64,000 bases of DNA from Paraprevotella sp. (lineage in GTDB: Bacteria > Bacteroidota > Bacteroidia > Bacteroidales > Bacteroidaceae). Below the pieces are notes generated by a model, which saw only the letters and a program-made list of their open reading frames with translations, was not told where the DNA came from and did no database searches. A program made the position numbers and the translations under genes. Below, piece after piece: positions 48,961 to 64,000 of this stretch (the first letter of the stretch is position 1; every line of letters begins with the position of its first letter). The stretch is from assembly GCA_017937925.1 (NCBI GenBank), contig JAGBCQ010000008.1, forward strand, positions 62,001 through 126,000. Reading direction: 5' to 3'.

Positions 48961-51900
48961 ATGAAGGGAGCCTCCAAACATATTATTTGTTCTTTACTGA
49001 TGATTATCGGCATCTGCACATGGGCTAGTGCCGGCGTTGGCTCGTTTCAAGAATTTCAATCTACAAGAACAGCTGTTCAAGACGAAAAAGACACCATTAA
49101 ACCACGTTATAGTGTACGTCGCACAGCAACCAACACTGAAGATGACTTCAAAAAGCGCAGCATGGATTTGCGCGAACCGGAGAATCTTAAAACCGATACG
49201 GTTTACGACACGAAGACCGGGACTTACACCATTGGTACAAAATTAGGCGATAGTTACTTAAACGCCCCATACTTGATGACTGACAAAGAGTATCAAGAAT
49301 GGAGCTTACAAAAATCTCTTCAAAGTTATTATCGCCAACGCAACGCTGAAGAATTTGAGACTTCCGGGAAGAAAAAATTTGATTTCACCGATATGCAATT
49401 CGATTTAGGACCGGCAGAAAAAATATTCGGTCCCGGTGGCGTACGTCTGAAAACACAAGGCTCCGCAGAACTGAAAATCGGTGCAAACATGAAGAAAACC
49501 GACAACCCAAGCATCTCAGAAAGTCGTCGTAAGACTTTCGGCTTTGATTTTGACGAAAAAATCAACATCAGCATGAATGGTAAGGTCGGTGACAAAATAA
49601 ACCTAAACTTGAACTATAATACCGACGCAACCTTTGATTTTGATGCTCAAAGCATGAAATTGAAATACGAAGGAAAAGAGGATGAAATCGTAAAGTTAAT
49701 TGAAGCGGGAAACGTCTCGTTGCCGACCAACTCTTCCCTTATAAGAGGAGCATCCTCATTATTCGGTCTGCGCACGGACTTGCAATTTGGAAAACTTAAA
49801 TTGCAAACCGTTGTTTCACAAAAGAAATCTTCATCGAAAAGCGTATCTTCAAAAGGTGGTGTTCAACTACATCCTTACGAGTTTTCCGTAACTGAATACG
49901 AAGAAAACCGCCACTTCTTCCTCGCCCATTTCTTCCGCGACCGTTATGATGCTAATATGAGTAAATTACCGACTATCACTTCCGGTGTTACCATCAAACG
50001 CATTGAATTATGGGTAACGAACAAGACCGGTAGTTACGAAAGTAACAGAAACATTGTAGCATTTACGGACCTAGGCGAATCTGAGCATATCTCCAACACA
50101 TTATGGAGTCAAAGTGGATTGAATGTAGCGAGCAATAAAGCCAATAATTTGTATGCCTCTATGGCAGGACAGTATGTAGCAGCGCGCGACATTAGTCAAA
50201 CGTCTAACGTATTGGATGCCATTCCCGGTTTTGAAGGAAGTATCGATTACGAGAAATTGCAAAGTGCTCGTAAGTTATCATCATCAGAATATACGCTTAA
50301 CTCAACTTTAGGTTACGTTTCATTGAACTTTAACCTTCAGCCTGATGAAGTATTGGCAGTAGCTTTTGAATACACCTACAACGGAACAACCTATCAAGTA
50401 GGAGAATTATCATCCGACTTGACGGACAACACTCAGGCACTTTTTGTCAAAACATTAAAAAACACATCAAATACTCCCCAAATGGGTAACTGGGATTTGA
50501 TGATGAAGAACGTATATAGTCTTAACGCGACAACAACACAAAAAGATAAATTCAAATTAGACATCAAATACCAAAGTGACTCTGCAGGTGTATATGTTTC
50601 CTATCTTCCTGAAGCACAATTCAAAAATACTAAATTACTGAAAGTGATGAACCTCGACCGTTTGGATGCCAACAATCGTCCTAATCCCAATGGCCAGTTC
50701 GACTATGTAGAAGGTTACACCATCAGTAAGGGACGTATATTCTTCCCAGTCACAGAACCTTTCGGCTCACATTTAAGAAAATACCTAAAGGACGACGCAT
50801 TGGCTGAGAAATATTGCTTTGATGCCCTATACGACTCTACGAAAACCATTGCCAAACAGATTGCCGAGAAAAACAAATACATGATTACCGGTGAGTACAA
50901 AGGCAATAATGGTGCAGAAATAAGTTTGGGAGCAATGAATGTCCCTCAAGGGTCTGTCGTTGTTACAGCCGGCGGTGTCACATTGACGGAAAATACAGAT
51001 TATACTGTAGATTATTCTATGGGCGTAGTTACCATCATCAATCAAAGCATCATCGATGCCGGTACAAACGTGAATGTAAGTCTTGAAAGTAACGATTATT
51101 ACGGCATGCAACGCAAGACGCTTGTCGGCTTCAACATGCAATATGATGTCAGCAAAGACCTTTCCATCGGTGGTACTTTTATGTTCTTGAATGAACATCC
51201 GCTCACAACCAAAGTCAATATGGGTGAAGAACCCTTGAAGAATACTTTATGGGGCATCAATCTATCATGGAAAAAAGAAAGCCAATGGCTGACGAACTTA
51301 TTGGACAAGATTCCCTTCGTTGATGTAACCGCTCCATCTCAAATCAGTTTTGACGGAGAATTTGCTCAACTTATCGCCGGACAAAATAAAAAGATTCAAG
51401 GGGCTGCTTCGTACATCGACGACTTTGAAAATACCAAAAACGGCATCAGCGTGATGCAACCTACAAGTTGGATGATGTCAAGTGTTCCGTCGGATTTTGA
51501 TGAAAGTAAATTAGTAAACGACATTCGCTCAGGCTATAACAGGGCCCTACTCAGTTGGTACTATGTTGACCCTCTATTCACCCGACAAAGTTCATCACTG
51601 ACCCCGGCTCATATCAAGAGTGACTTGAACCAACTTTCAAACCATTACGTAAGAGAGGTCTTTGAAAGGGAACTATACCCGAACAAGACCCAAACCAGTT
51701 ATAACTCTGCAAGCTCTCTGCCGGTGATGAACTTGGCGTTCTACCCTACTGAGAGAGGAGCTTACAACCTTAACCCTAACATCACACAGGAAGGCCGACT
51801 TGACAATCCTATGAAGAAATGGGGTGGCATGATGCGTAAGCTTGACACCAATGACTTTGAAATGGCAAACATTGAGTATGTTGAGTTCTGGTTGCTTGAT

Positions 51901-54900
51901 CCGTTCATCTATCTGCGAGAGCAAGGCGGAAACTACGGCGGCGATTTCTACATCAACTTAGGTGAAGTCAGCGAAGACATTTTGCACGATGGCAAAAAAT
52001 ATTTTGAAAGCGGTATGCCTATAGATGGCAACTCAACATACTATACTGAGACTGCATGGGGACGAGTGCCTAATACCACAAGCGTAGTGTATGCCTTCAA
52101 TAATCAAAGCGGATCGCGCGAACGACAAGACATCGGTTTGGACGGTTTGAATAGCGAAGAGGAAAAGACTTATGGTGCATACAAAGAGTTCCTTATGGCT
52201 GTTCAAGGCAAAGTCAATCCGGCAGTATATGACTCATTACTCCTTGACCCGGCAAACGATAATTATCATTATTTCAGAGGTTCTGACTACGATGCTCAAC
52301 AGCGTAGCATCCTTGATAGATACAAGTACATTAACCTACCTGAAGGAAATTCACGCTCAAATGAGAATGAAAACGAATCGTATGACACTTCCTACAAAAC
52401 AACACCGGACGTAGAAGATATTAACCAAGACTACACACTGAACGAATACGAGAAATACTACCAGTACAAAATCAGTATCCGCCCGGAGGATTTCGTAGTT
52501 GGACGTAATTACATTGTTGACAAACGAACTGCAAGTGTCAAACTACGCAATGGTAATACGGAGGAAGTCAATTGGTACCAATTCCGTGTACCTGTAGATG
52601 AATATCAAAAGAAGGTAGGAAACATCAACGACTTTACAAGCATCCGTTTCATGCGTATGTTCTTGACTAATTTTGAGTTGCCTATCGTTCTACGTTTTGC
52701 CACTTTGGATTTGGTGAAAGCAGAATGGCGTTCTTACGAACAAGCTCTCTATCAAGGAGAAATGCCGACAACAAATGGAAGTATTGAGATTTCCGCAGTC
52801 AATATCGAGGAAAATAATGACAAGACACCTGTGAACTATGTTCTTCCTCCGGGAGTGAGTCGCGTGGTGGACCCTGCACAAAGTCAGTTGGCAGAAGAAA
52901 ATGAGCAAGCTTTGGCCTTAACAGTAAAGAATTTAGCTCCCGGAGACGCTAGAGCCGTATATAAAAACACAAACATTGACATGAGACAATACAAACATAT
53001 CCAAATGTTCGTTCATGCCAATGCTCTCGCTGAGAATGTGACTGAAACAGAGAACAACCAAACAAGTCTTTTCATCCGCTTAGGCTCTGACTACAAAAAC
53101 AACTTCTACGAGTACGAAATACCACTTCAATTGACTCCGGAAGGACATTATGACACATATTCGGCAGATCAGTGTCGCGCTGTTTGGCCTGAAGAAAACA
53201 TGATAGACATAGACCTATCAATATTTACCGATGTCAAGCAGTCACGCAATAAAGAAAAGAGTTTAGGCAGAACCAACCTCACCACTCTTTATTCTGTATA
53301 TGATTCGAAGCGTCCGAACAATCGAATCAGCGTTATGGGTAATCCTACTCTTGGCGAAGTAAAGACCATTATGATAGGTATCCGTAATAATGCCCGAGAA
53401 ACCAAATCTGTCGAAGTTTGGGCTAACGAGCTCCGTTTGCAAGAATATACAAATGACGGCGGATGGGCGGCACAAGGAAACTTGAATATCCAACTTTCCG
53501 ATTTGGGTTCTGTCAACCTTACCGGACACATTGAGACTGCCGGATTTGGTGGTATCGAGGATGCTGTTAGCGACCGTAATCAAGAAGACATGTACAATTA
53601 CAGCATCACGACCAACTTTGAACTAGGAAAATTATTACCAGAGAAAGTCCGCCTATCTGCACCTATATATTACTCTTATAATAAGGAGATCATCCGTCCG
53701 AAATACAACCCTCTAGATACGGACATGCTTCTGAAAGATGCGCTTGATGCTTGTGCTACTGACGAAGAGCGCGACTCGCTGGAAAGTCTGACTACAACAA
53801 AGACAACCAACAAAAACTTCAGCTTGAGCAATGTAAAATTCAATATTGCCACACCGAAGCATCCGATGCCATACGACCCTGCAAACTTCTCGTTCAGTTA
53901 TTCACACAGCGAATCTAACAAGACCGGCGAGACTACGGCTTGGGAAACCGACAAACAATGGAACGGAGCTTTCAATTATAGCTATTCTCCCAATTATAAA
54001 CCGTTCGAGCCATTCAAGAAAGTCATCAAGAGCAAGAGTAAATGGTTAGACATTATTCGCGACCAAAACTTCAATTACCTACCACAGAGTTTGACTTTCA
54101 ACACCAATATTATACGAAATTATTACGAATTCCAGGAGAGAGACATTGACAACTTGGAGGATGCTACCTCGCTACCTCTATCCTACTCCAAAGAATTCTT
54201 GTGGAATCGCGATTTCAGTATCAGATGGGACTTGACCAAAGCGCTCCGGTTCTCTTTCTCTTCAGCTACGCACGCTGAAATTGAAGAACCTAACGTGCCT
54301 GTTAATAAAGACTTATATGCAGACCAATACACAGCATGGAAGGACTCGGTAAAACATAGCATCTTGAGTTTCGGTACGCCTATCAGTTACCAACAAGACT
54401 TCACAGCCTCATACAAAGTACCTCTTGAAAAGATACCATGTTTTGCATGGATGAGCCTAGATGGAAACTACACTGCCAACTACTCATGGAACAAAGGTAT
54501 GGAAGTGGAAGATGGTACGAATTATGGCAATACCATCAATAATCAACGTTCTATTAACGTGAATGGCAAGTTCAATTTGGAAACGCTCTACAATATGTCT
54601 CCTTATTTAAAAGAGGTGAACAAGAAATTCTCTGCCGGAGAACGTAAAAAGGCAAAGGACAAGAGCAATCGCGAGAAAAGCCAGGCTAAAGCCAAAGCAA
54701 AAGCCGCAAGAGAAAAAGCAGAAGCGGAAGGCAAAGATGGTGACGAAGCAGAAAAGAAAGCATTGGCAGATAATGCCAAAGGTAAAGCTAACGCCAAATT
54801 AAAGAATACCCGATTTAAAGGATTCGCCGGAGAAATCAAACTGAAACCTGATACCTCCGTTGTTCTGACACACAATCAAAAAAGTAAGAAAATCCGCGTT

Positions 54901-56547
54901 ACGGCGGTTGATCCGAAAGGAAAGAAGTATCCTATCAAGTTTAAGAAAATTGACGAGAATAAGATTCAGATTCTTAACATGGACACGATGAAGCTACGTG
55001 TTAATGTCATGGCAAAACCAAAGGCTAGTGAGAAAGCATGGTACCCCTACGCACAAGGTCTTACTCGTTTCTTGATGATGGTTCGTAACGTAAGCGTCAG
55101 CTACAGGAACACATACGCCATGTCATTGCCGGGATTCATGCCAAACGTTGGAGACATGTTAGGGCAACGTACCGGTGGCGGTATGCAACCCGGTCTTGAT
55201 TTTGCCTTCGGTTTCGTTGGTGACAGCTACATCGACAAGGCTAACGAACGAGGATGGTTGCTCAACAATGATAGTATCAGCACGCCAGCTACAACTAACG
55301 CAATGGAGGATTTGCAAATCAAAGCCACTTTAGAGCCTATACCCGATTTGAAAATAGACTTGAACGCCAGTCGTACAGTCAATAGTAACAAAAGCATCCA
55401 ATATATGTATGCCGGAATGCCTACGACACAAAGCGGAAGTTTCAATATGACAACCATTTCCATCAAATCAGCATTCGAAAGTCGTGGCAATGCTGAAAAC
55501 GGATATAGTAGCAAGACTTTCCAACGCTTCCAGCAATATCTCAACACATTCCAGCAAAGAGTTGAAAGCCGGTATGCCAACGCTACTTATCCTGCAGCAA
55601 CAGGACTCAGTGGTAAGTTCAACCCCGAAAATGGCACGGTCAACAAATACTCATCAGACGTCATGATACCGGCATTCCTTGCAGCATACACAGGTGGTAG
55701 CGACATCAATTCGCCATTGGACATCTTCCCGAAGATTACCCGAATGTTGCCCAACTGGAGTATCTCATACAAAGGACTTGGATACTTACCATGGCTACGC
55801 GACCACTTCAAGAGTGTAACGCTTAACCACTCATACAAGAGCATCTATTCGGTTGGTTCATACAACACTTACAGCAGTTGGATGGAGTATATGGGTGATA
55901 TGGGATTCATTCAAAACACAACGGATAATGCCATCGTACCGAGCAGTATGTACGACATCAGCAGCGTGTCTATCAATGAGTCTTTCTCCCCATTGGCAGG
56001 ATTGGATTTTACCCTCAACAACAATATGACTTTCAAGGTAGAGTACCGCAAAACTCGTGTCTTGACATTAAGTATGACTGCAGCTCAACTCAACGAATCA
56101 AGCAGTGATGACTTTGTTATTGGTTGGGGATATAAAATCAATGACTTCAAGTTCTCTTCTTTATTTGGTAGCAAACGTAAAAGAGCGGCCAACAAAGCTA
56201 ATCGCAATACAAGCAAAAATGCAACTAACAATCGTAACGTAAGCCGTAATACAAATCAAAAGACGAGCAAGAGTCGCGCTATCAGTCACGACCTGAACTT
56301 ACGTTTCGACTTCTCGTTCCGCAACCAAGATGCAATCACTCGCAACATACAAACGTCGCTTTCTGAAGCTACTAGCGGAAACAAAGCCATCAAAGCCTCT
56401 TTCAGTGCCGACTATACCATCAGTCGTTACGTCACGCTCAGTTTATACTACGACCGTCAGCGCAATCAACCGCTATTGTCATCGAATGCCTACCCTACCA
56501 TTACACAGGACTTCGGTTTCAACCTTCGCTTCTCATTGACGCGATAA
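48961..56547 (+). CDS. sprA: Type IX secretion outer-membrane translocon SprA (Sov)
   Basis: A 2528-residue outer-membrane protein. SprA forms the very large 36-strand barrel through which type IX cargo crosses. It has a signal-type N-terminus (HIICSLLMIIGICTWASAG). SprA-N-type segments follow from about 150, including the FDFTDMQFDLGPAEKIFGPGGVRLKTQGSAELK stretch, KINLNLNYNTDATFDFD and LRTDLQFGKLKLQTVVSQK. Many alternating beta stretches follow, ending in the C-terminal strand DFGFNLRFSLTR. Two basic low-complexity insertions interrupt barrel loops, at about 1888-1945 (Ala/Lys/Glu-rich) and 2404-2440 (Asn/Lys/Arg-rich). The length is near the family norm. Its last 75 bases recur at 61651-61725. 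Other type IX components are not in this window. Confidence 0.95.
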   Translation: MKGASKHIICSLLMIIGICTWASAGVGSFQEFQSTRTAVQDEKDTIKPRYSVRRTATNTEDDFKKRSMDLREPENLKTDTVYDTKTGTYTIGTKLGDSYLNAPYLMTDKEYQEWSLQKSLQSYYRQRNAEEFETSGKKKFDFTDMQFDLGPAEKIFGPGGVRLKTQGSAELKIGANMKKTDNPSISESRRKTFGFDFDEKINISMNGKVGDKINLNLNYNTDATFDFDAQSMKLKYEGKEDEIVKLIEAGNVSLPTNSSLIRGASSLFGLRTDLQFGKLKLQTVVSQKKSSSKSVSSKGGVQLHPYEFSVTEYEENRHFFLAHFFRDRYDANMSKLPTITSGVTIKRIELWVTNKTGSYESNRNIVAFTDLGESEHISNTLWSQSGLNVASNKANNLYASMAGQYVAARDISQTSNVLDAIPGFEGSIDYEKLQSARKLSSSEYTLNSTLGYVSLNFNLQPDEVLAVAFEYTYNGTTYQVGELSSDLTDNTQALFVKTLKNTSNTPQMGNWDLMMKNVYSLNATTTQKDKFKLDIKYQSDSAGVYVSYLPEAQFKNTKLLKVMNLDRLDANNRPNPNGQFDYVEGYTISKGRIFFPVTEPFGSHLRKYLKDDALAEKYCFDALYDSTKTIAKQIAEKNKYMITGEYKGNNGAEISLGAMNVPQGSVVVTAGGVTLTENTDYTVDYSMGVVTIINQSIIDAGTNVNVSLESNDYYGMQRKTLVGFNMQYDVSKDLSIGGTFMFLNEHPLTTKVNMGEEPLKNTLWGINLSWKKESQWLTNLLDKIPFVDVTAPSQISFDGEFAQLIAGQNKKIQGAASYIDDFENTKNGISVMQPTSWMMSSVPSDFDESKLVNDIRSGYNRALLSWYYVDPLFTRQSSSLTPAHIKSDLNQLSNHYVREVFERELYPNKTQTSYNSASSLPVMNLAFYPTERGAYNLNPNITQEGRLDNPMKKWGGMMRKLDTNDFEMANIEYVEFWLLDPFIYLREQGGNYGGDFYINLGEVSEDILHDGKKYFESGMPIDGNSTYYTETAWGRVPNTTSVVYAFNNQSGSRERQDIGLDGLNSEEEKTYGAYKEFLMAVQGKVNPAVYDSLLLDPANDNYHYFRGSDYDAQQRSILDRYKYINLPEGNSRSNENENESYDTSYKTTPDVEDINQDYTLNEYEKYYQYKISIRPEDFVVGRNYIVDKRTASVKLRNGNTEEVNWYQFRVPVDEYQKKVGNINDFTSIRFMRMFLTNFELPIVLRFATLDLVKAEWRSYEQALYQGEMPTTNGSIEISAVNIEENNDKTPVNYVLPPGVSRVVDPAQSQLAEENEQALALTVKNLAPGDARAVYKNTNIDMRQYKHIQMFVHANALAENVTETENNQTSLFIRLGSDYKNNFYEYEIPLQLTPEGHYDTYSADQCRAVWPEENMIDIDLSIFTDVKQSRNKEKSLGRTNLTTLYSVYDSKRPNNRISVMGNPTLGEVKTIMIGIRNNARETKSVEVWANELRLQEYTNDGGWAAQGNLNIQLSDLGSVNLTGHIETAGFGGIEDAVSDRNQEDMYNYSITTNFELGKLLPEKVRLSAPIYYSYNKEIIRPKYNPLDTDMLLKDALDACATDEERDSLESLTTTKTTNKNFSLSNVKFNIATPKHPMPYDPANFSFSYSHSESNKTGETTAWETDKQWNGAFNYSYSPNYKPFEPFKKVIKSKSKWLDIIRDQNFNYLPQSLTFNTNIIRNYYEFQERDIDNLEDATSLPLSYSKEFLWNRDFSIRWDLTKALRFSFSSATHAEIEEPNVPVNKDLYADQYTAWKDSVKHSILSFGTPISYQQDFTASYKVPLEKIPCFAWMSLDGNYTANYSWNKGMEVEDGTNYGNTINNQRSINVNGKFNLETLYNMSPYLKEVNKKFSAGERKKAKDKSNREKSQAKAKAKAAREKAEAEGKDGDEAEKKALADNAKGKANAKLKNTRFKGFAGEIKLKPDTSVVLTHNQKSKKIRVTAVDPKGKKYPIKFKKIDENKIQILNMDTMKLRVNVMAKPKASEKAWYPYAQGLTRFLMMVRNVSVSYRNTYAMSLPGFMPNVGDMLGQRTGGGMQPGLDFAFGFVGDSYIDKANERGWLLNNDSISTPATTNAMEDLQIKATLEPIPDLKIDLNASRTVNSNKSIQYMYAGMPTTQSGSFNMTTISIKSAFESRGNAENGYSSKTFQRFQQYLNTFQQRVESRYANATYPAATGLSGKFNPENGTVNKYSSDVMIPAFLAAYTGGSDINSPLDIFPKITRMLPNWSISYKGLGYLPWLRDHFKSVTLNHSYKSIYSVGSYNTYSSWMEYMGDMGFIQNTTDNAIVPSSMYDISSVSINESFSPLAGLDFTLNNNMTFKVEYRKTRVLTLSMTAAQLNESSSDDFVIGWGYKINDFKFSSLFGSKRKRAANKANRNTSKNATNNRNVSRNTNQKTSKSRAISHDLNLRFDFSFRNQDAITRNIQTSLSEATSGNKAIKASFSADYTISRYVTLSLYYDRQRNQPLLSSNAYPTITQDFGFNLRFSLTR
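56473..56547 (+). repeat. Intact copy of a 75-bp direct repeat (3' end of sprA)
   Basis: These 75 bases, ending exactly with the sprA stop codon, align without gaps to 61651-61725 with 65 identities (87%) by direct comparison. The copies flank four genes. Confidence 0.9.
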
Positions 56548-56592
56548 TGAATTCTATTGGACATCTATTGTTATCCGATAATTGCTTAAATA

Positions 56593-56640
56593 AAAAGTGT
56601 GAGTCCCAAAGTCTTTGTACAAACTTCGGGACTCACTTTT
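56593..56640. terminator. Terminator between sprA and the convergent secreted-protein gene
   Basis: AAAAGTGTGAGTCCCAAAG pairs with CTTCGGGACTCACTTTT (ending 56640) with one mismatch and a slight offset around a loop. T-rich and A-rich flanks allow bidirectional use. Confidence 0.75.
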
Positions 56641-56673
56641 ATAACCGTTTTATTGTTATAACAAAATTTCAAC

Positions 56674-58404
56674 TTACAAATCTAAGAACCACTTTGTCAA
56701 TTTGTTGTTCTTGAAATAGAAACGTCCGGTTTCTTTTGAGCCTAACTGATAATTATAATCATCCTCACCGTACCAATAATATTTCTTGTCCATCTTGGCT
56801 CCAACAAGTTGATATACTTTTGTATCACCATTACTTTCTATTAATTTCAGTGGCATCATAGAATTTTTAAATTCCAAGAGGAACTCATCCTCAGTCATAC
56901 CCTCATAGAAACTTTGAGTAATATTGCCACCACTAACATTTGCTGACCAAGAGGTATTACCATTCACAGGAACCTTCACTAAAGCTATAGGGAATTTCAA
57001 ATTAGGTCCATAAACAATTCCGCCATTCTCTCTATGTTCAATCAGTTTCACATTCTTTCCAGATGTAGAGAAACACATTGCTTGGACGGTACTTTCATCA
57101 TATTTTATATAAACATAAAGAGCCATGGTTTTCCCTTGTGCACCAAAATCGTAAGTTTTCAGTACTGCAACGGCTTTTTCTAGACCTTTTAATGGATAAG
57201 ATGTTCCTTCAAGAATAAAACCATCAATATTGACTTTCATATTAGGATAGGAATAAGCCTTTTCACAAATGACTTTAATTGCCTGATTCTTATTTTTGGC
57301 GGCATCGGCCTTCGCTTTCATTACTGCGGCTTGTCTCTGTTCTTCAGCCTTACGCTCCTCTTCGGCTTTTCTATTCAGTTCTTCTATCTCTGCCAAAGTT
57401 AGTCCATTCTTATATTCTATATTTTCGCCATTTTTGACCATGATACCGGTAACCGGACAGATTTTCATACTCTCAAGAGAAGGCGCTTTCATCACATCAT
57501 TAATTATCCTCTCCGAACTATATGAATCTATACCAACAAGTCCTTTAGCATCGTTTATGCCATGATCATAAAACAATCTAACTGTTCCTTTATAATTCGC
57601 TCCATCCGCATAGGCAATGTTTGCTTCCTTATTATGACTATTATAGTCCAAAACTCCATCAGGGCATGTTTTACGAAGCACTAGTTCTTCACCTTTTTTC
57701 CTCAAGAAATCTCCATTGGCATATTCAATATCAAAATTATATTGGTCATAAATAGTTACTTTTGTTCCGTCGGCATAAACTGGTTTTGGTGTGATTTCCC
57801 CCTTTCTCAACTCCCATTGATTGTTCAATACGTACTCTTGAACTTGGTACACTTCTTTTATCTCACCAATTGATTGATAAAAACGGCTGTAATTAGAACT
57901 TTGAATATTTCCCCCCTTGGTTTTATAACATAAAGGTTCGGATTTTGTTTCACACCCCTCGAACGAAGGGATACGTGTAATGACTAATGGATTATCACGA
58001 CTGATGGTATAATCACAATGGTCTGAGGAAGTAAAAGTACCTTCCAATAAAGTATATTTCACACTGTTGTTGTCTAGTATCTCATAGTCAAGTTCACCTT
58101 TGAAAGTTGCAGTATTCAACCATAAAGGACCGTTGTATCTTGCGAATTGCACTTTGGCATCAACGACTTTCCCCTGAGAGAATTTTCCTTGCAAAACATC
58201 CTTGTTCACTTCTTTCTTTGTTCCATACTCCGTCATTCTTTCAACTTTGTACTCTGTAATCAGTTTTCCCTTACCTTCAGGATTCTTTGAAGCATCAACC
58301 TTACCATCATATGTAACAAATCTCCCGTACTTAATTTCTTCCGCAAGCGTTCCCTTGGGAAACAAGCACATAAAAAACACCAATAAGCTAAAAATCTTCT
58401 TCAT
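56674..58404 (-). CDS. Secreted hypothetical protein with MORN-like repeats
   Basis: A 576-residue protein with a signal peptide (MKKIFSLLVFFMCLFPKGTLAEE). The first 340 residues contain repeated short beta units of the type YGRFVTYDGKV, LQGKFSQGKV, ATFKGELDYEI, ADGTKVTIYDQYN and YANGDFLRKKGEE, resembling degenerate MORN repeats. A Lys/Glu/Ala-rich helical linker is at about 345-375 (LAEIEELNRKAEEERKAEEQRQ). A C-terminal domain (about 380-576) follows with no match I recognise. No lipobox, so it is periplasmic or exported. It ends the leftward two-gene unit after the lipoprotein gene (17 bases between). The function is unknown. It lies inside the repeat-bounded block. Confidence 0.75.
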   Translation of the reverse strand: MKKIFSLLVFFMCLFPKGTLAEEIKYGRFVTYDGKVDASKNPEGKGKLITEYKVERMTEYGTKKEVNKDVLQGKFSQGKVVDAKVQFARYNGPLWLNTATFKGELDYEILDNNSVKYTLLEGTFTSSDHCDYTISRDNPLVITRIPSFEGCETKSEPLCYKTKGGNIQSSNYSRFYQSIGEIKEVYQVQEYVLNNQWELRKGEITPKPVYADGTKVTIYDQYNFDIEYANGDFLRKKGEELVLRKTCPDGVLDYNSHNKEANIAYADGANYKGTVRLFYDHGINDAKGLVGIDSYSSERIINDVMKAPSLESMKICPVTGIMVKNGENIEYKNGLTLAEIEELNRKAEEERKAEEQRQAAVMKAKADAAKNKNQAIKVICEKAYSYPNMKVNIDGFILEGTSYPLKGLEKAVAVLKTYDFGAQGKTMALYVYIKYDESTVQAMCFSTSGKNVKLIEHRENGGIVYGPNLKFPIALVKVPVNGNTSWSANVSGGNITQSFYEGMTEDEFLLEFKNSMMPLKLIESNGDTKVYQLVGAKMDKKYYWYGEDDYNYQLGSKETGRFYFKNNKLTKWFLDL

Positions 58405-58421
58405 ATTCTTATTTTTATGAG

Positions 58422-59408
58422 TTATACATTCTCGGTTTCAATACTATCTGATTCTTCCTCTTCAGTCGCCTCCTCTGCTTCAATCATTTTGAGTTCATCT
58501 ATACAATTGTCATATTCTGTTCCGTCAAAAGCAATCACATTATTATTCATTACAGCTTCAACTGGCACCTCTACTCTTGCTGTTGCCACATAGTTATAAT
58601 AGTAACGTCCATCCCATGTTTTATTTCTTTTTATAGAATTCGGTATGTTCATATTATAGCGATTCGTAGAATAAGGAAGTAACTTTGCTGATTCAGAACC
58701 ATAGAAAGCACTAGTTTCACCCATATACTCGTCATTACCCAAAGATTTTAGTCCCAAATGAACATTGAATCCGGTACAAGAGTATTGCGTATTATTTTGA
58801 ATTGTAAAGTATGCCTTATTGTCATCACCAATTTTCGCCTTCCCATTATAAAAATTCTTATATCCCCTTATCCTGGCATTCGTTTCAATCATATAAGCTA
58901 TTTCCGCAGCTTTGTTTACATATATCTTGTACGCATAACCACAGCGTTCCTTATATTCCAAATCGGTATATTTCTTGTTCTTTATCGCTCCACAGGCAGA
59001 AACATAATATGGTAACAATCCCGGGTTGATAAGTCCTGTACTATTAATAATAATGTATGGGAAAGCCAGACTATCCTTCGGTTCAGTAGCTTTGTAAGTC
59101 AAAGTCAGTAACGACTTTTCTACATCATTCAACGAATTGTTCTCACTAAAGGTACGTACCAAAGATACTTGATACAAATCATCTTCCAAATCTTTAAATT
59201 CTGTCACCTCAATGTTGTCAAATGCCAACTCGGCATATTTCAGTTCAAGGTCAGGATAAAGCATCTGTAACGAATCAAAAGATTCCTCATTGTAGTAATT
59301 GAAAAACTTATGCGTCAGTTCGGTCATTTGATCTTCTTTGCTCACACAAGAATACACTGACAACAAAGTAACTAAAAGCAACAAGTGCCATAAAAAGGTC
59401 TTTTTCAT
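58422..59408 (-). CDS. Hypothetical lipoprotein
   Basis: A 328-residue predicted lipoprotein. The signal peptide ends in the lipobox SVYSC (Cys21), followed by SKEDQM. The body mixes helical N-terminal sequence (ELTHKFFNYYNEESFDSLQML) with a beta-rich C-terminal half. The latter resembles a small beta-sandwich domain (IQNNTQYSCTGFNVHLGL, RVEVPVEAVMNNNVIAF). The tail is very acidic (EAEEATEEEESDSIETE). I recognise no family. It is the first gene of a leftward pair with the MORN-like secreted protein and is preceded by an unusually long untranslated stretch. Confidence 0.75.
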   Translation of the reverse strand: MKKTFLWHLLLLVTLLSVYSCVSKEDQMTELTHKFFNYYNEESFDSLQMLYPDLELKYAELAFDNIEVTEFKDLEDDLYQVSLVRTFSENNSLNDVEKSLLTLTYKATEPKDSLAFPYIIINSTGLINPGLLPYYVSACGAIKNKKYTDLEYKERCGYAYKIYVNKAAEIAYMIETNARIRGYKNFYNGKAKIGDDNKAYFTIQNNTQYSCTGFNVHLGLKSLGNDEYMGETSAFYGSESAKLLPYSTNRYNMNIPNSIKRNKTWDGRYYYNYVATARVEVPVEAVMNNNVIAFDGTEYDNCIDELKMIEAEEATEEEESDSIETENV

Positions 59409-59732
59409 AATTAAATAATTTATAGTTAATACTCATTTCTTTCCTTTCACGCCCTCACACTCCATGGAACAAAGAGTGTGAGCCTTCTTGACATTCTTAG
59501 TCTGAAGGTTCTGGAAATACCCGTGAATGTAAGAATGAAATATCAGCTCACACTTGTAGGTATAATCATACTGTACACCCTATGAAAAGACATACTGTCA
59601 TCACATACACCACAAGAGGAACAACTTTCAAACTTATCACTCATTCACTTGTATGAAATTTTCCAGATTTCAGACGGATCAAAGTTCAACGTTATTCTCA
59701 AAGTAGCAGTCCTTATTATTAAGAACCATGCA
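59409..59732 (-). other. Long leader region upstream of the lipoprotein gene
   Basis: The 455-base gap to the kinase gene contains no convincing gene. Leftward transcription from the -7 box at 59733-59740 would give a leader of about 320 bases. It holds a 9-bp inverted repeat (CTCACACTC 59454-59462 with GAGTGTGAG 59474-59482) and a 33-codon frame at 59543-59644 on the minus strand with a CxxCxxC motif. A regulatory leader is possible but unproven. Confidence 0.35.
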
Positions 59733-59740
59733 CAAAGATA
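59733..59740 (-). promoter_or_regulatory. -7 element for the lipoprotein operon
   Basis: The minus strand reads TATCTTTG, a perfect TAnnTTTG, but 325 bases before the start codon. No strong -33 was found. Confidence 0.4.
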
Positions 59741-59858
59741 CATTTTTTTTGAAAGCTTTTCCATTGTGAACTGATTTTTTTTGCAAATTAAGTTAAATAA
59801 GGATGAACGACTGCAGTCCAAATTAGTCCTTTTTATCAAAAATGTATAAGTTTCAGAA

Positions 59859-59874
59859 TAACTTTGTATTTTTG
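59859..59874 (+). promoter_or_regulatory. Two abutting -7 elements at the kinase gene start
   Basis: TAACTTTG (59859-59866) and TATTTTTG (59867-59874) are both perfect TAnnTTTG matches. The second ends 4 bases before the kinase ATG, so the mRNA would have a leader of about 0-10 bases. An ATG at 59864 is excluded. Confidence 0.6.
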
Positions 59875-59878
59875 CAGT

Positions 59879-61090
59879 ATGATGGAACCAGATAAATTAG
59901 AAACTTCTATATCAGGCTATATTGTAGATGCGGTAGAAGACGTGAACCGTGAATTTACGGATATAAAGATTTTGCAAACCTCGGATGTTAATATCGTAGC
60001 TAAAGGGAAACGCTATGGTAGATGGTGGATTTTAAAATGTTTGACCGGTGCAGTTGCCGACCAATCAGCCTACCGAATGCGGTTGCGGAAAGAAATGGAA
60101 CTGCTTATGGAATCGCAACACCCGAATATCGTGAACGTACATGGCTTTGAGAAAGTAGAGACTTTAGGCGAGTGCATCGTAATGGAATATATCGACGGCA
60201 CGACACTCACCGAATGGCTGAAAGGAAAAACGAAAAAGACGGAAAGAATCAGAGTGGCTAACGAAATTATGAATGCCATCGCTTATATACATGCCAAGGG
60301 AGTTGTACATCGGGACCTAAAACCGGGAAATATTCTGATTTCAAGATTGGGAGAACATGTAAAGGTGATAGACTTCGGATTAGCAGATTCCAAAGATTAT
60401 GCCGTTCTGAAACAACCGGCAGGAACAGTCAAGTATATGTCACCGGAACAAATGAACACTAATGTTCCGGACGTACGAAATGACATTTACAGTTTGGGCA
60501 TCATACTTCAACAAATGGATTTGGGTACTAACTTTGCCCCGACTATTAACAAATGCCTGTCGCCCATCAATGAACGTTACACGAACATCAGTGAACTACT
60601 GGAGGAACTTCAAAAAAGAACCAAACGACGCAAGCGGATACTCATTGGTTGTTTCATAGGATTAGCATTGATAATAGCCCTATTGGCAATGACGCAAATG
60701 ACAGGCATTCAGACGGAATTGAAAGTGACAAACCATCAGTTAATGGAAATACAAGAGCAACAAGAACAACAAGACGAAAAGAACAAACGTATAGATGAAG
60801 CCATTAGCAAAGGGAAGTTACTCATTGATGAGAAGATTGAACAAACAGGTCTCGGGCAACATCTGGATACACTGAGCAATGTGATATACATGCGTGGTGA
60901 ACTGTTTGACAGACTACACGAAAGCACACATGCCATCACTAAATATATGGAAACATTGCCTGCGGATTTTGAGAAAAACGAAAAAGAAGAAATCTACAAG
61001 GCGTTAATGTCATATAATGGGCAGAGACAACAAGTATTGATTGACAAGTTCAATAAATTGATGGAGGAATATGCGCAACAGATTATGTAA
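59879..61090 (+). CDS. Hanks-type Ser/Thr protein kinase with membrane anchor
   Basis: A protein of about 403 residues. The cytoplasmic kinase domain (about 25-240) has the VAIK-type Lys in WWILKC, the C-helix Glu region RLRKEMELL, catalytic loop VVHRDLKPGNIL, metal motif VIDFGLAD, the activation-segment end TVKYMSPEQM and DIYSLGIIL. The Gly-rich loop is degenerate (TSDVNIVAKGKRYG lacks GxGxxG). One membrane helix (ILIGCFIGLALIIALLAM, about 256-274) leads to an extracytoplasmic Gln/Glu/Lys coiled-coil-like part without PASTA repeats. The substrate is unknown. The final 20 bases overlap the next gene. It starts at ATG 59879 or 59882, just after two promoter boxes. Confidence 0.9.
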   Translation: MMEPDKLETSISGYIVDAVEDVNREFTDIKILQTSDVNIVAKGKRYGRWWILKCLTGAVADQSAYRMRLRKEMELLMESQHPNIVNVHGFEKVETLGECIVMEYIDGTTLTEWLKGKTKKTERIRVANEIMNAIAYIHAKGVVHRDLKPGNILISRLGEHVKVIDFGLADSKDYAVLKQPAGTVKYMSPEQMNTNVPDVRNDIYSLGIILQQMDLGTNFAPTINKCLSPINERYTNISELLEELQKRTKRRKRILIGCFIGLALIIALLAMTQMTGIQTELKVTNHQLMEIQEQQEQQDEKNKRIDEAISKGKLLIDEKIEQTGLGQHLDTLSNVIYMRGELFDRLHESTHAITKYMETLPADFEKNEKEEIYKALMSYNGQRQQVLIDKFNKLMEEYAQQIM

Positions 61091-61634
61091 AGAAATCGAG
61101 TCAGCTATAGGACAACGTCTGAGAACTCCAAAAGATTTCGACTATCTTCGGAAATGTATCTACGCTCGTTTACGCATTATCGTAAGTAGCACAACCTTAA
61201 AAAGATTATGGGGCTACCTGAACGATGGCGGAGAACCTCGCGAAGCCACGCTCACAACACTATGCCGTTTTTTGGGTTACCGAGATTGGGAAAATTTTGT
61301 CCAATCACAAGGTCAGACAGAAGACCTACCGAGTTCGCCTGTTCTCTGCAGGCGACTAAATGTAAGCACCGAGTTGAAGAAAAACGATTGTCTGCGACTG
61401 ACATGGCAACCTAAAAGATGGTGTGACGTCATCTACTTAGGCAATCTACAATTTCTTGTGACGGCATCAGAAAACACGCGACTGAAACAAGGCGATACAT
61501 TTCAATGCAGTCTCATCATCGAGGGTGAGCCTCTCTATCTGGATGGTCTTCGACAGGGCTCACTACCTCCTGTTGCCTACGTATGTGGTAAAAAAAACGG
61601 AGTAAGATTTGAGAAACTGATTAACCACCATTGA
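61071..61634 (+). CDS. Hypothetical protein with possible DNA-binding N-terminal domain
   Basis: A 187-residue protein whose N-terminal 85 residues are helical: LCKEIESAIGQRLRTPKDF, SSTTLKRLWGYL, and EATLTTLCRFLGYRDWENFV. The TLKRLWGYL ... TLCRFLGYRDWENF pattern recurs in many Bacteroidota proteins and looks like a compact helix-turn-helix or interaction domain. The C-terminal half is beta-rich (LRLTWQPKRWCDVIYLGNLQFLV, FQCSLIIEGEPLYLDGL). No signal or membrane helix. Its start lies inside the kinase gene end, so the two are translationally coupled, and it may act as the kinase's cytoplasmic partner or target. This is inference from layout. Confidence 0.75.
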   Translation: MRNRLCKEIESAIGQRLRTPKDFDYLRKCIYARLRIIVSSTTLKRLWGYLNDGGEPREATLTTLCRFLGYRDWENFVQSQGQTEDLPSSPVLCRRLNVSTELKKNDCLRLTWQPKRWCDVIYLGNLQFLVTASENTRLKQGDTFQCSLIIEGEPLYLDGLRQGSLPPVAYVCGKKNGVRFEKLINHH

Positions 61635-61650
61635 AAGGGTTCTTAAACTA

Positions 61651-61725
61651 CTTTTGCCATTGAATGCCTACTCTACCATCACACAGAACTTCGGTTTAAA
61701 CCTTTGCTTCTCATTAACGCAATAA
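61651..61725 (+). pseudogene. Decayed 3' fragment of sprA
   Basis: It aligns base for base with the last 75 bases of sprA (10 mismatches, no gap). In the matching frame it reads NAYSTITQNFGLNLCFSLTQ then TAA, against NAYPTITQDFGFNLRFSLTR in the intact gene. Several changes are nonconservative (Arg to Cys, Phe to Leu), and most mismatches trade G/C in sprA for A/T in the copy, as expected of unselected sequence. There is no start and no upstream sprA sequence, so it is a remnant. Confidence 0.9.
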
Positions 61726-61867: not shown

Positions 61868-62716
61868 ATGAAAAAGAAAAATTATGTAAGTCTTTTGGGT
61901 TTTATGGCCTTTGGACTAGTTAGTCTCTCCTCATGCGGTGGGAATGACGGTGAATTTACGAAGAGTGCAGCAGAAGACGCTCTTGAAGAAATGGACGTAT
62001 TCGAAGAGAATGCCCATACTGTGAAGTTTGAAACCGGTTACTACGAGATGAACGACGCAGACTACCGCCTGAAATTATTAAAGTTGGCTGCCAACGAAGT
62101 GATAACCTACAAAGCAGAACAAATCAACGAATATATTCCAGCAACACGTTGGAGAAGTGCAAGAGTTAAGGAACACGTGTTTGTAACTGTTCAACTTACA
62201 GATAAAGGCGAAAAATACGTTATAGAGAAACCAAGTCAAACAGAAGAAGAGGCTGAACTCGTGGCAGCTGTCGATACTAAAGAATATCCTGAGGACAAAG
62301 TTCTTCAAGAAGGTCCCATTCCTGTTATAAATCCACAAGCTAACGAAAATGCAGAGGCTCCTGTTGAAGAATTTGAGGAAAATTTTGACGATGCATTCCA
62401 ACCGGACGATTCTCCAATGAATAACAATACGGGAACAACGGAAGCTAATGAGTACCAAAAGGCTTTGGCTAAAATAAATATTAACTCAGTGTACGTACTA
62501 ACTCAGGAAATCGGGATTTATAAAGTAATGAATCTTGTATGCAATGACGAGATGAAGAAATCAGGCACAGCATCGTGTGACTTCATCATTGAAGCTACTG
62601 ATGTTACACCATTTGGTAGAATCCTAAAAGGCGTAAAGAAAGGTACACGCGAGAAAGGCAGTGCCACTTTCAAATATTACATAGATAAGGGCTGGCATGT
62701 AGAAAGATATATGTAA
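61868..62716 (+). CDS. Hypothetical lipoprotein
   Basis: A 282-residue predicted lipoprotein with the signal MKKKNYVSLLGFMAFGLVSLSSC and lipobox LSSC (Cys23). Residues 30-135 form one mixed alpha/beta region (EDALEEMDVFEENAHTVKFETGYYEMND). A low-complexity acidic and Asn/Pro-rich linker runs from about 160 to 195. The C-terminal part (IYKVMNLVCNDEMKKSGTASCDFII ... KYYIDKGWHVERYM) resembles a small domain of related length. No family recognised. Its position just after the sprA fragment suggests it was the gene originally following sprA. It has its own promoter and terminator. Confidence 0.75.
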   Translation: MKKKNYVSLLGFMAFGLVSLSSCGGNDGEFTKSAAEDALEEMDVFEENAHTVKFETGYYEMNDADYRLKLLKLAANEVITYKAEQINEYIPATRWRSARVKEHVFVTVQLTDKGEKYVIEKPSQTEEEAELVAAVDTKEYPEDKVLQEGPIPVINPQANENAEAPVEEFEENFDDAFQPDDSPMNNNTGTTEANEYQKALAKININSVYVLTQEIGIYKVMNLVCNDEMKKSGTASCDFIIEATDVTPFGRILKGVKKGTREKGSATFKYYIDKGWHVERYM

Positions 62717-63083: not shown

Positions 63084-63443
63084 ATGAATGTTGACAATGC
63101 AAAATCCCAAATGCGGAAAGGAATGTTGGAATATTGCGTTCTTCTACTTCTTAGCAAGGAACCATCGTATGCCTCCGACATTATCATCCGACTGAAGGAA
63201 GCCAAACTGATTGTGGTTGAGGGTACACTCTACCCACTACTCACGCGACTGAAAAACGATGGGCTACTCAGTTACGAATGGCGCGAGTCCACACAAGGGC
63301 CACCGCGCAAGTATTATGCCCTCACCTCCGAAGGGGAACTCTTTCTAACGGGGCTCGACAGCGCATGGAATGAGTTGTCCACAACTGTAAAGCATCTCAA
63401 GACCAAAGGTAATGAGGAAAACGAAACATCAACGACTAATTAA
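63084..63443 (+). CDS. PadR-family transcriptional regulator
   Basis: A 119-residue winged-helix repressor of the PadR group. Landmarks are QMRKGMLEYCVLLLLSKEPSYASDIIIRLKEA (helices 1-3), VEGTLYPLLTRLKNDGLLSYEW (recognition helix with the conserved GTLYPLL), RESTQGPPRKYYALTSEGE (wing) and a short dimerisation helix LDSAWNELSTTVKHL. PadR proteins repress their own operon and release on ligand or stress. Here the gene is followed 9 bases later by a PspC-type membrane protein and preceded by a palindrome in the promoter, a typical autoregulated envelope-stress cassette. Confidence 0.95.
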   Translation: MNVDNAKSQMRKGMLEYCVLLLLSKEPSYASDIIIRLKEAKLIVVEGTLYPLLTRLKNDGLLSYEWRESTQGPPRKYYALTSEGELFLTGLDSAWNELSTTVKHLKTKGNEENETSTTN

Positions 63444-63452
63444 ATCTACACA

Positions 63453-64000
63453 ATGAAAAAGAATATCAATATCAACTTCTTTGGCACACTATATGCCATT
63501 GATGAGGACGCATACGAATTGCTCAATCGTTACATCAACGATATCAAGAAGTATTTTTCAGGCAAAGAAGGCGGTGAAGAAATCTCCGATGATATAGAGC
63601 ATCGTATAGCCGAAGTAATGCAAGAGCTAAAGGCAGAAGGTAAAGAGCCGATAAGCATCGAGCTGGTAAAGGAAATTATCGCACGAATAGGGAAACCCGA
63701 AGAACTCTGCAATGCGACAGACGAGGAAGAAGGGGAAAACAGTAGCAAGGCACATCGCGGAAAGGATTGGTTCACTAAACACATCAGCAAGAAGAAATTA
63801 TATCGCAATCCCGACGACAAGATGCTGTGTGGCGTGCTATCCGGTATTGGCTGCTATGCGGGCATTGATCCGCTTTGGTTACGTTTAGCTATAATCATAC
63901 TAACCATTGTACCTCTCCCATTTATCTCCGTATCATTATTTTCCGCATTATTAGTATATTTCCTATTTGCCTTAATTATACCGGAGGCCAACACGCCCGA
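63453..64000 (+). CDS. PspC domain membrane protein, 3' end beyond the window
   Basis: The first 182 codons of a protein that runs off the window. Residues 1-105 are a soluble helical region (MKKNININFFGTLYAIDEDAY, ISDDIEHRIAEVMQELKAEGKEPISIELVKEIIARIGKPEEL), the N-terminal part usual for Bacteroidota PspC proteins. A PspC domain then follows: KKLYRNPDDKMLCGVLSGIGCYAGIDPLWLRLAIIILTIV with a first membrane helix and the start of a second. PspC relatives sense or protect the cytoplasmic membrane under stress. It is co-transcribed with padR. Confidence 0.92.
   Translation, partial: MKKNININFFGTLYAIDEDAYELLNRYINDIKKYFSGKEGGEEISDDIEHRIAEVMQELKAEGKEPISIELVKEIIARIGKPEELCNATDEEEGENSSKAHRGKDWFTKHISKKKLYRNPDDKMLCGVLSGIGCYAGIDPLWLRLAIIILTIVPLPFISVSLFSALLVYFLFALIIPEANTP

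What the first reader, a model, noticed from the sequence alone, without database searches (positions are those of the whole stretch)
56473..61725. 75-bp direct repeat of the sprA 3' end brackets a four-gene islet
The last 75 bases of sprA, stop codon included, recur at 61651-61725 with 65/75 identities and no gaps. The copy is a frame remnant without start or upstream sprA sequence. The block between (56548-61650) holds two leftward exported-protein genes and a rightward kinase/regulator pair. This is the pattern left when an element integrates at the 3' end of a gene and restores it, or when a sprA-end duplication accompanies an insertion. No integrase or transposase remains, so the mechanism is open. 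The copies have diverged about 13%, so the event is old.
Basis: partly seen in the sequence, partly recalled or inferred. Interest (0 to 1): 0.75.

Follow-up and report, generated by a model that had tools for sequence, protein, structure and literature searches.

The report
Leftover sprA gene tail beside insert
A gut bacterium carries a decayed second copy of the last 75-80 bases of its sprA gene about 5 kb past the real one, probably a scar left when extra genes were slipped in behind sprA; it is a tidy example of a known kind of scar.

Summary
The repeat is real: 65/75 identities; the next best place in the window scores 35-36. The genome is a Paraprevotella MAG. Copy B (61651-61725) is a dead copy of this lineage's own sprA tail: its changes fit neutral decay (3 silent, 7 replacement; 3.7 silent expected). 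None of 80 sprA ends fetched from other genomes shows a second copy; 58 of them are long enough to show one at this distance. Of the islet's genes, only a fragment of the first is found behind sprA elsewhere, in the nearest relative, G007. So an insertion behind sprA that duplicated its tail is likely. Two corrections. In 5 of 16 same-genus sprA loci a CCA-adding-enzyme gene, not the 61868 lipoprotein gene, follows sprA; measured against these the extra DNA is about 11.2 kb and B lies inside it. And nothing found supports an integrase. Instead, the last ~85 sprA codons and the DNA behind them are about 96% identical between G000 and G007, against 72-80% in the long matches elsewhere: a sign of recent exchange anchored in sprA. 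I favour homology-anchored insertion. How B was made is inferred, and the G007 evidence is one short MAG contig.

The parts
48961..56547 (+). sprA, intact (2528 aa)
   Evidence: SprA_N, E 4.8e-247
56473..56547 (+). copy A: the functional last 75 bases of sprA
56290..56821 (+). stretch unusually alike in G007 (about 96%): sprA end, intergenic DNA and the end of the first islet gene; left edge between about 56290 and 56380, right edge is the end of the G007 contig
56674..58404 (-). exported 576-aa protein, no Pfam or NCBIfam family
58422..59408 (-). 328-aa lipoprotein-like exported protein; found in no other of 301 family genomes
59879..61090 (+). Ser/Thr protein kinase with a hydrophobic (membrane-like) stretch after the kinase domain
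   Evidence: Pkinase E 2.4e-38; the hydrophobic stretch is read from the translation
61071..61634 (+). 187-aa partner of the kinase, no family match; relatives stand beside kinases in 8 of 10 loci read
61651..61725 (+). copy B: decayed duplicate of the sprA tail
61868..62716 (+). lipoprotein gene right of B, in none of 17 same-genus genomes and in 4 others of 301 family genomes; part of the 11.2 kb not seen in the relatives with sprA followed by the CCA-adding-enzyme gene
63084..63443 (+). PadR regulator gene, found elsewhere in the genomes of other Paraprevotella; first of a pair that runs past the window

Best explanation
Copy B is a scar. DNA carrying the kinase, its partner and two exported genes entered behind sprA. 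One side joined by homology in the sprA 3' end, so sprA stayed whole; the other side joined within the old sprA tail without long homology, or the DNA came as a circle carrying about 80 bp of sprA tail and went in by single crossover. Either way the last 75-80 bases of the old tail were pushed 5.1 kb downstream and have since decayed. Shown: the repeat, its origin from this lineage's sprA tail, its neutral-looking decay, and an unusually alike G000-G007 stretch that begins inside sprA. Inferred: that the islet came in at the event that made B, and how the ends were joined.
For: B carries the Asn codon shared by A and G007 where the 18 other sprA ends compared read Ser, so it comes from this lineage's tail. 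B's changes: 3 silent, 7 replacement, 3.7 silent expected. No second tail in 80 fetched sprA ends, 58 of them with at least 5178 bases behind sprA. sprA followed closely by a CCA-adding-enzyme gene in 5 of 16 same-genus loci, with no islet, and 1.0 kb behind in L143. G000-G007 divergence at 4-fold sites drops from 61/87 to 7/38 in the last 85 codons, the lowest ratio of 105 well-diverged pairs; long matches elsewhere are 72-80% identical. The order intact gene, cargo, displaced tail is described for single crossover of circles beside homology-facilitated illegitimate recombination in PMC3240628 (abstract and passages), and a shifted-back 3' end is proposed in PMC5361080 (passages).
Against: No genome shows the state just before the insertion (sprA followed by the DNA now right of B). 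In three same-genus genomes (L101, L106, L107) the CCA-adding-enzyme gene lies on the other side of sprA, and what follows sprA differs from species to species, so gene order is shuffled and the empty site is not clean. Described insertions by homology-facilitated illegitimate recombination are about 1 kb with deletions of like size and 3-10 bp of microhomology; here the block is 5.1 kb and only 'AAC' is shared at the junction. The G007 exchange is younger than B, so it shows the anchor at work but is not the event that made B. G007 is a MAG and its 3140-base contig may be chimeric. Nothing shows that the islet and B arose in one event.
Confidence: 0.5

Rival explanations
1. Site-specific integration. 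An integrative element used the sprA 3' end as attachment site, brought a replacement tail (A), pushed the old tail to its far end (B) and later lost its integrase or used one in trans.
For: Same order of parts. The match ends exactly at the stop codon, as expected of a replacement tail that need only encode the protein end.
Against: No recombinase among the islet genes. No second tail in 80 other sprA ends. Sprawl of different genes behind sprA, with no recombinase among the 25 of 99 Pfam families shown for 81 of 139 neighbouring ORFs (the other 74 families were not seen). No viral contig with an exact match to the tail pattern.
Confidence: 0.2
2. Local copying. A short piece of the sprA end was copied 5 kb away by tandem duplication with later deletion, or as filler DNA during break repair, independent of the islet's arrival.
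For: B derives from the same lineage's tail, and no step linking B to the islet is shown.
Against: A tandem duplication should repeat the DNA behind the tail too, but the stretches after A and after B share no repeat. It does not explain why the copy stops at the stop codon.
Confidence: 0.2
3. Assembly artefact of a MAG.
For: G000 is a 78.6% complete MAG.
Against: A and B differ at 10 of 75 sites, both lie in one 204-kb contig, and G007 carries the sprA-islet junction with about 4% differences.
Confidence: 0.05
4. B is a conserved functional RNA or peptide.
For: Little; it keeps 87% identity.
Against: Changes fall as expected without coding selection, no Rfam match at gathering scores, and it is not seen in the other sprA loci.
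Confidence: 0.03

Closest known systems
Homology-facilitated illegitimate recombination, and the single-crossover duplications seen beside it (PMC3240628, abstract and passages read)
   Same: Foreign DNA enters beside a gene with homology on one side only; the single-crossover form leaves a truncated copy of the gene's end beyond the insert.
   Different: Larger block, only three shared bases at the junction, and the donor and the pre-insertion state are unknown.
Displaced effector 3' ends and orphan immunity genes in Vibrio cholerae T6SS clusters (PMC5361080, passages read)
   Same: New genes arrive behind a conserved anchor and older 3' ends are pushed back.
   Different: sprA is a secretion/motility gene whose encoded end is kept, not swapped; one displaced tail only, no array.
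Integrative elements at the 3' ends of conserved genes (recalled)
   Same: Intact gene, cargo, displaced 3' fragment as a direct repeat.
   Different: No recombinase, no second occupied site and no element elsewhere with the tail was found.

Membership tests
Homology-facilitated illegitimate recombination | Homologous join on one side | tested here: inconclusive
   A G000-G007 tract starts inside sprA, but it is younger than B
Homology-facilitated illegitimate recombination | Non-homologous join with short microhomology on the other side, with a deletion of similar size | tested here: inconclusive
   'AAC' shared left of B; no pre-insertion sequence to measure a deletion
Integrative element at a gene's 3' end | Direct repeat of the gene's end at both sides, gene kept whole | tested here: met
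Integrative element at a gene's 3' end | Site-specific recombinase | tested here: not met
   None among the four islet genes or the lipoprotein, PadR and 789-aa proteins scanned
Integrative element at a gene's 3' end | Same site occupied or empty in relatives, or element at other sites | tested here: inconclusive
   No tail repeat in 80 sprA ends; islet's 328-aa protein in no other of 301 genomes; clean empty site not seen
IS or transposon insertion | Terminal inverted repeats, short target duplication, transposase | tested here: not met
   No inverted pair at the block's ends, 75-80 bp repeat, no transposase among the islet genes

The most novel reading that the evidence does not exclude
In Paraprevotella the conserved 3' end of sprA acts as a standing homology anchor through which species trade whatever lies behind it: kinase and surface-protein cassettes arrive there, and displaced sprA tails are the fossil record of arrivals.
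Probability: 0.2. Interest if true: 0.5.

Novelty: new member of a known kind. Interest (0 to 1): 0.32.

Why it matters
A decayed gene tail can mark and roughly date an insertion when no integrase remains. Together with the G000-G007 tract it hints that long conserved genes can serve as anchors for swapping accessory genes between gut Bacteroidales species, which strain collections can test.

Tried and rejected
Rejected as chance and as functional RNA or peptide. No tRNA in L058, window 54973-65500. The idea that B is the native tail and A a distant donor's was dropped: A and B share silent states and the Asn codon. The idea that the G000-G007 exchange itself made B was dropped because B has more changes than that exchange allows (10/75 against 5/126; Fisher P 0.024, Poisson P 0.001). 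Plasmid records gave no match and phage records one 45-base match. The 576-aa protein was found in 7 of 399 family genomes, G000 and G007 included, the other five by partial matches at 32-49% identity. PDB gave nothing significant for the 187-aa protein. Literature: a search for Paraprevotella with sprA listed 10 of 338 papers, none by title about this gene; listings gave nothing used here.

Full report
Observation. The two copies are present as stated: 65 of 75 identities, no gap, stop codon included. With A as query no other place in the window exceeds 36; the best of 40 simulated windows gave 41. The match can be carried five bases further left (68/80) and stops at the stop codon on the right. 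No third copy lies in the following 16 kb. Searches of the own genome gave no further copy but are not sensitive, since each of the two copies was missed by the search with the other.

Setting. The window is bases 62001-126000 of contig C1 (204 kb) of a 2.06-Mb, 78.6% complete MAG. Named records of its nearest relatives place it in Paraprevotella; G007 is Paraprevotella sp. RGIG9451 from yak cecum.

What B is. At 8 of the 10 sites where A and B differ, A has the state of most relatives; sites 3 and 30, both silent, are unclear. At one codon A, B and G007 read Asn where the 18 other sprA ends compared read Ser. So B is a copy of this lineage's sprA tail. Its changes are 3 silent and 7 replacement, against 3.7 silent expected when the same base changes are placed at random: it looks like decay without coding selection.

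What same-genus relatives show. The sprA C-terminus was found in 48 of 61 genomes, G000 included. Of 16 same-genus genomes with a sprA locus besides G000, five (G002, G008, G013, G014, G015) have a CCA-adding-enzyme gene 0.26-1.6 kb behind the sprA stop (domains; name of the enzyme inferred from the domains). In G000 it lies about 11.2 kb behind, at L057:3727-5163. In eight others no such gene lies in the roughly 15 kb read, and three (G007, G010, G017) end within 1.8 kb. L143, a Prevotellaceae MAG, also has it 1.0 kb behind sprA, but in L101, L106 and L107 (the same contigs as G010, G016, G011) and in L116 it lies 8 kb or more on the other side, in the other orientation. So the DNA behind sprA changes from species to species, and measured against the five the extra DNA is 56548 to about 67700, not 56548-61650. 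The 61868 lipoprotein gene is in none of the 17 same-genus genomes and in 4 others of 301 family genomes. The PadR pair at 63084 stands in different neighbourhoods in the four species read.

Named sprA ends. Of 168 relatives the best 80 were kept; they overlap the genomes above. None has a second tail copy in the DNA held (best secondary score 41/75, chance level). 58 of the 80 hold at least the 5178 bases behind sprA in which this copy lies; G007 (L098) holds 293. Of the genes between A and B, only the end of the first was matched, in G007, there in two frames.

A stretch shared with G007. Over the last 900 codons of sprA G000 and G007 differ at 19% of bases. Of 39.7 kb of other window DNA searched in G007 about 26 kb aligned, the long matches at 72-80% identity. 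In the last 85 codons divergence at 4-fold sites falls from 61/87 to 7/38. The ratio, 0.26, is the lowest of the 105 pairs with body divergence above one half; the next are 0.51 and 0.53, so this end is somewhat conserved in general. Among all 136 pairs one near-identical pair (G010-G017) is lower. The change sets in between about 56290 and 56380, and 126 non-coding bases behind the stop differ at 5 places. I read this as recent exchange by recombination in sprA, direction unknown. A chimeric contig is not excluded. B, with 10 of 75 changes, looks older than this exchange (Fisher P 0.024, Poisson P 0.001).

The cargo. Kinase relatives are in 35 of 61 genomes, G000 included. I read ten kinase loci from the upper part of that list; in 8 of 10 a relative of the 187-aa gene stands beside the kinase; one (L083) ends soon after the kinase and in one (L085) it lies 5 kb away. 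Exported-protein genes point away from the pair in G006 and G009, as here, but not in G004. In G333, of another genus, a relative of the partner's first 80 residues stands opposite exported genes, one a relative of the end of the 576-aa protein; no kinase was matched there. So the four genes look like one cassette of a recurring type.

Mechanism. The order intact sprA, new genes, old tail results when incoming DNA joins by homology in a gene's end on one side and without it on the other, or when a circle with a piece of the gene's end goes in by single crossover (both described in PMC3240628, abstract and passages; a shifted-back 3' end by the same route is proposed in PMC5361080, passages). 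An integrase would leave the same order, but no recombinase was found in the islet, no second occupied site, no viral contig with the tail pattern, and no plasmid or phage home for the islet. I put homology-anchored insertion at 0.5, integrase at 0.2, local copying at 0.2, artefact at 0.05 and function at 0.03.

Verdict. The right boundary and the predicted empty site are not borne out, and the integrase reading has no support beyond the order of parts. It is a new member of a known kind.

Noticed in passing
56290-56821 (G007:C189 = L044): sprA's last ~85 codons and the DNA behind are about 96% identical between G000 and G007 while sprA's body differs by about 20%: a likely recent exchange between species.
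   Followed up: partly
59879-61634; L078-L087, L186: Kinase and 187-aa partner recur side by side in Bacteroidaceae (8 of 10 loci read), sometimes with divergent exported-protein genes: a module without a family name in Pfam or NCBIfam for the partner.
   Followed up: partly
63084-64000 and L057:1-1123: PadR gene and the 556-aa gene behind it stand in different neighbourhoods in each of four Paraprevotella species read (L086, L088, L089, L090).
   Followed up: partly
61868-62716: Lipoprotein gene missing from 17 same-genus genomes; relatives in 4 other genomes of 301 from the family.
   Followed up: partly
L101, L106, L107, L116 compared with L099, L100, L103, L119, L143: The CCA-adding-enzyme gene lies behind sprA in some species and on the far side of sprA, turned round, in others, as if the sprA block had been inverted or moved.
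   Followed up: no
56599-56636: Strong 16-pair stem with a T-run on the minus strand between sprA and the first islet gene, fit to end transcription of the leftward exported genes.
   Followed up: no
L108-L139 (several loci): In many rumen Bacteroidaceae/Bacteroidales MAGs an adenylosuccinate-lyase-like gene follows sprA, unlike the varied neighbours in Paraprevotella.
   Followed up: no
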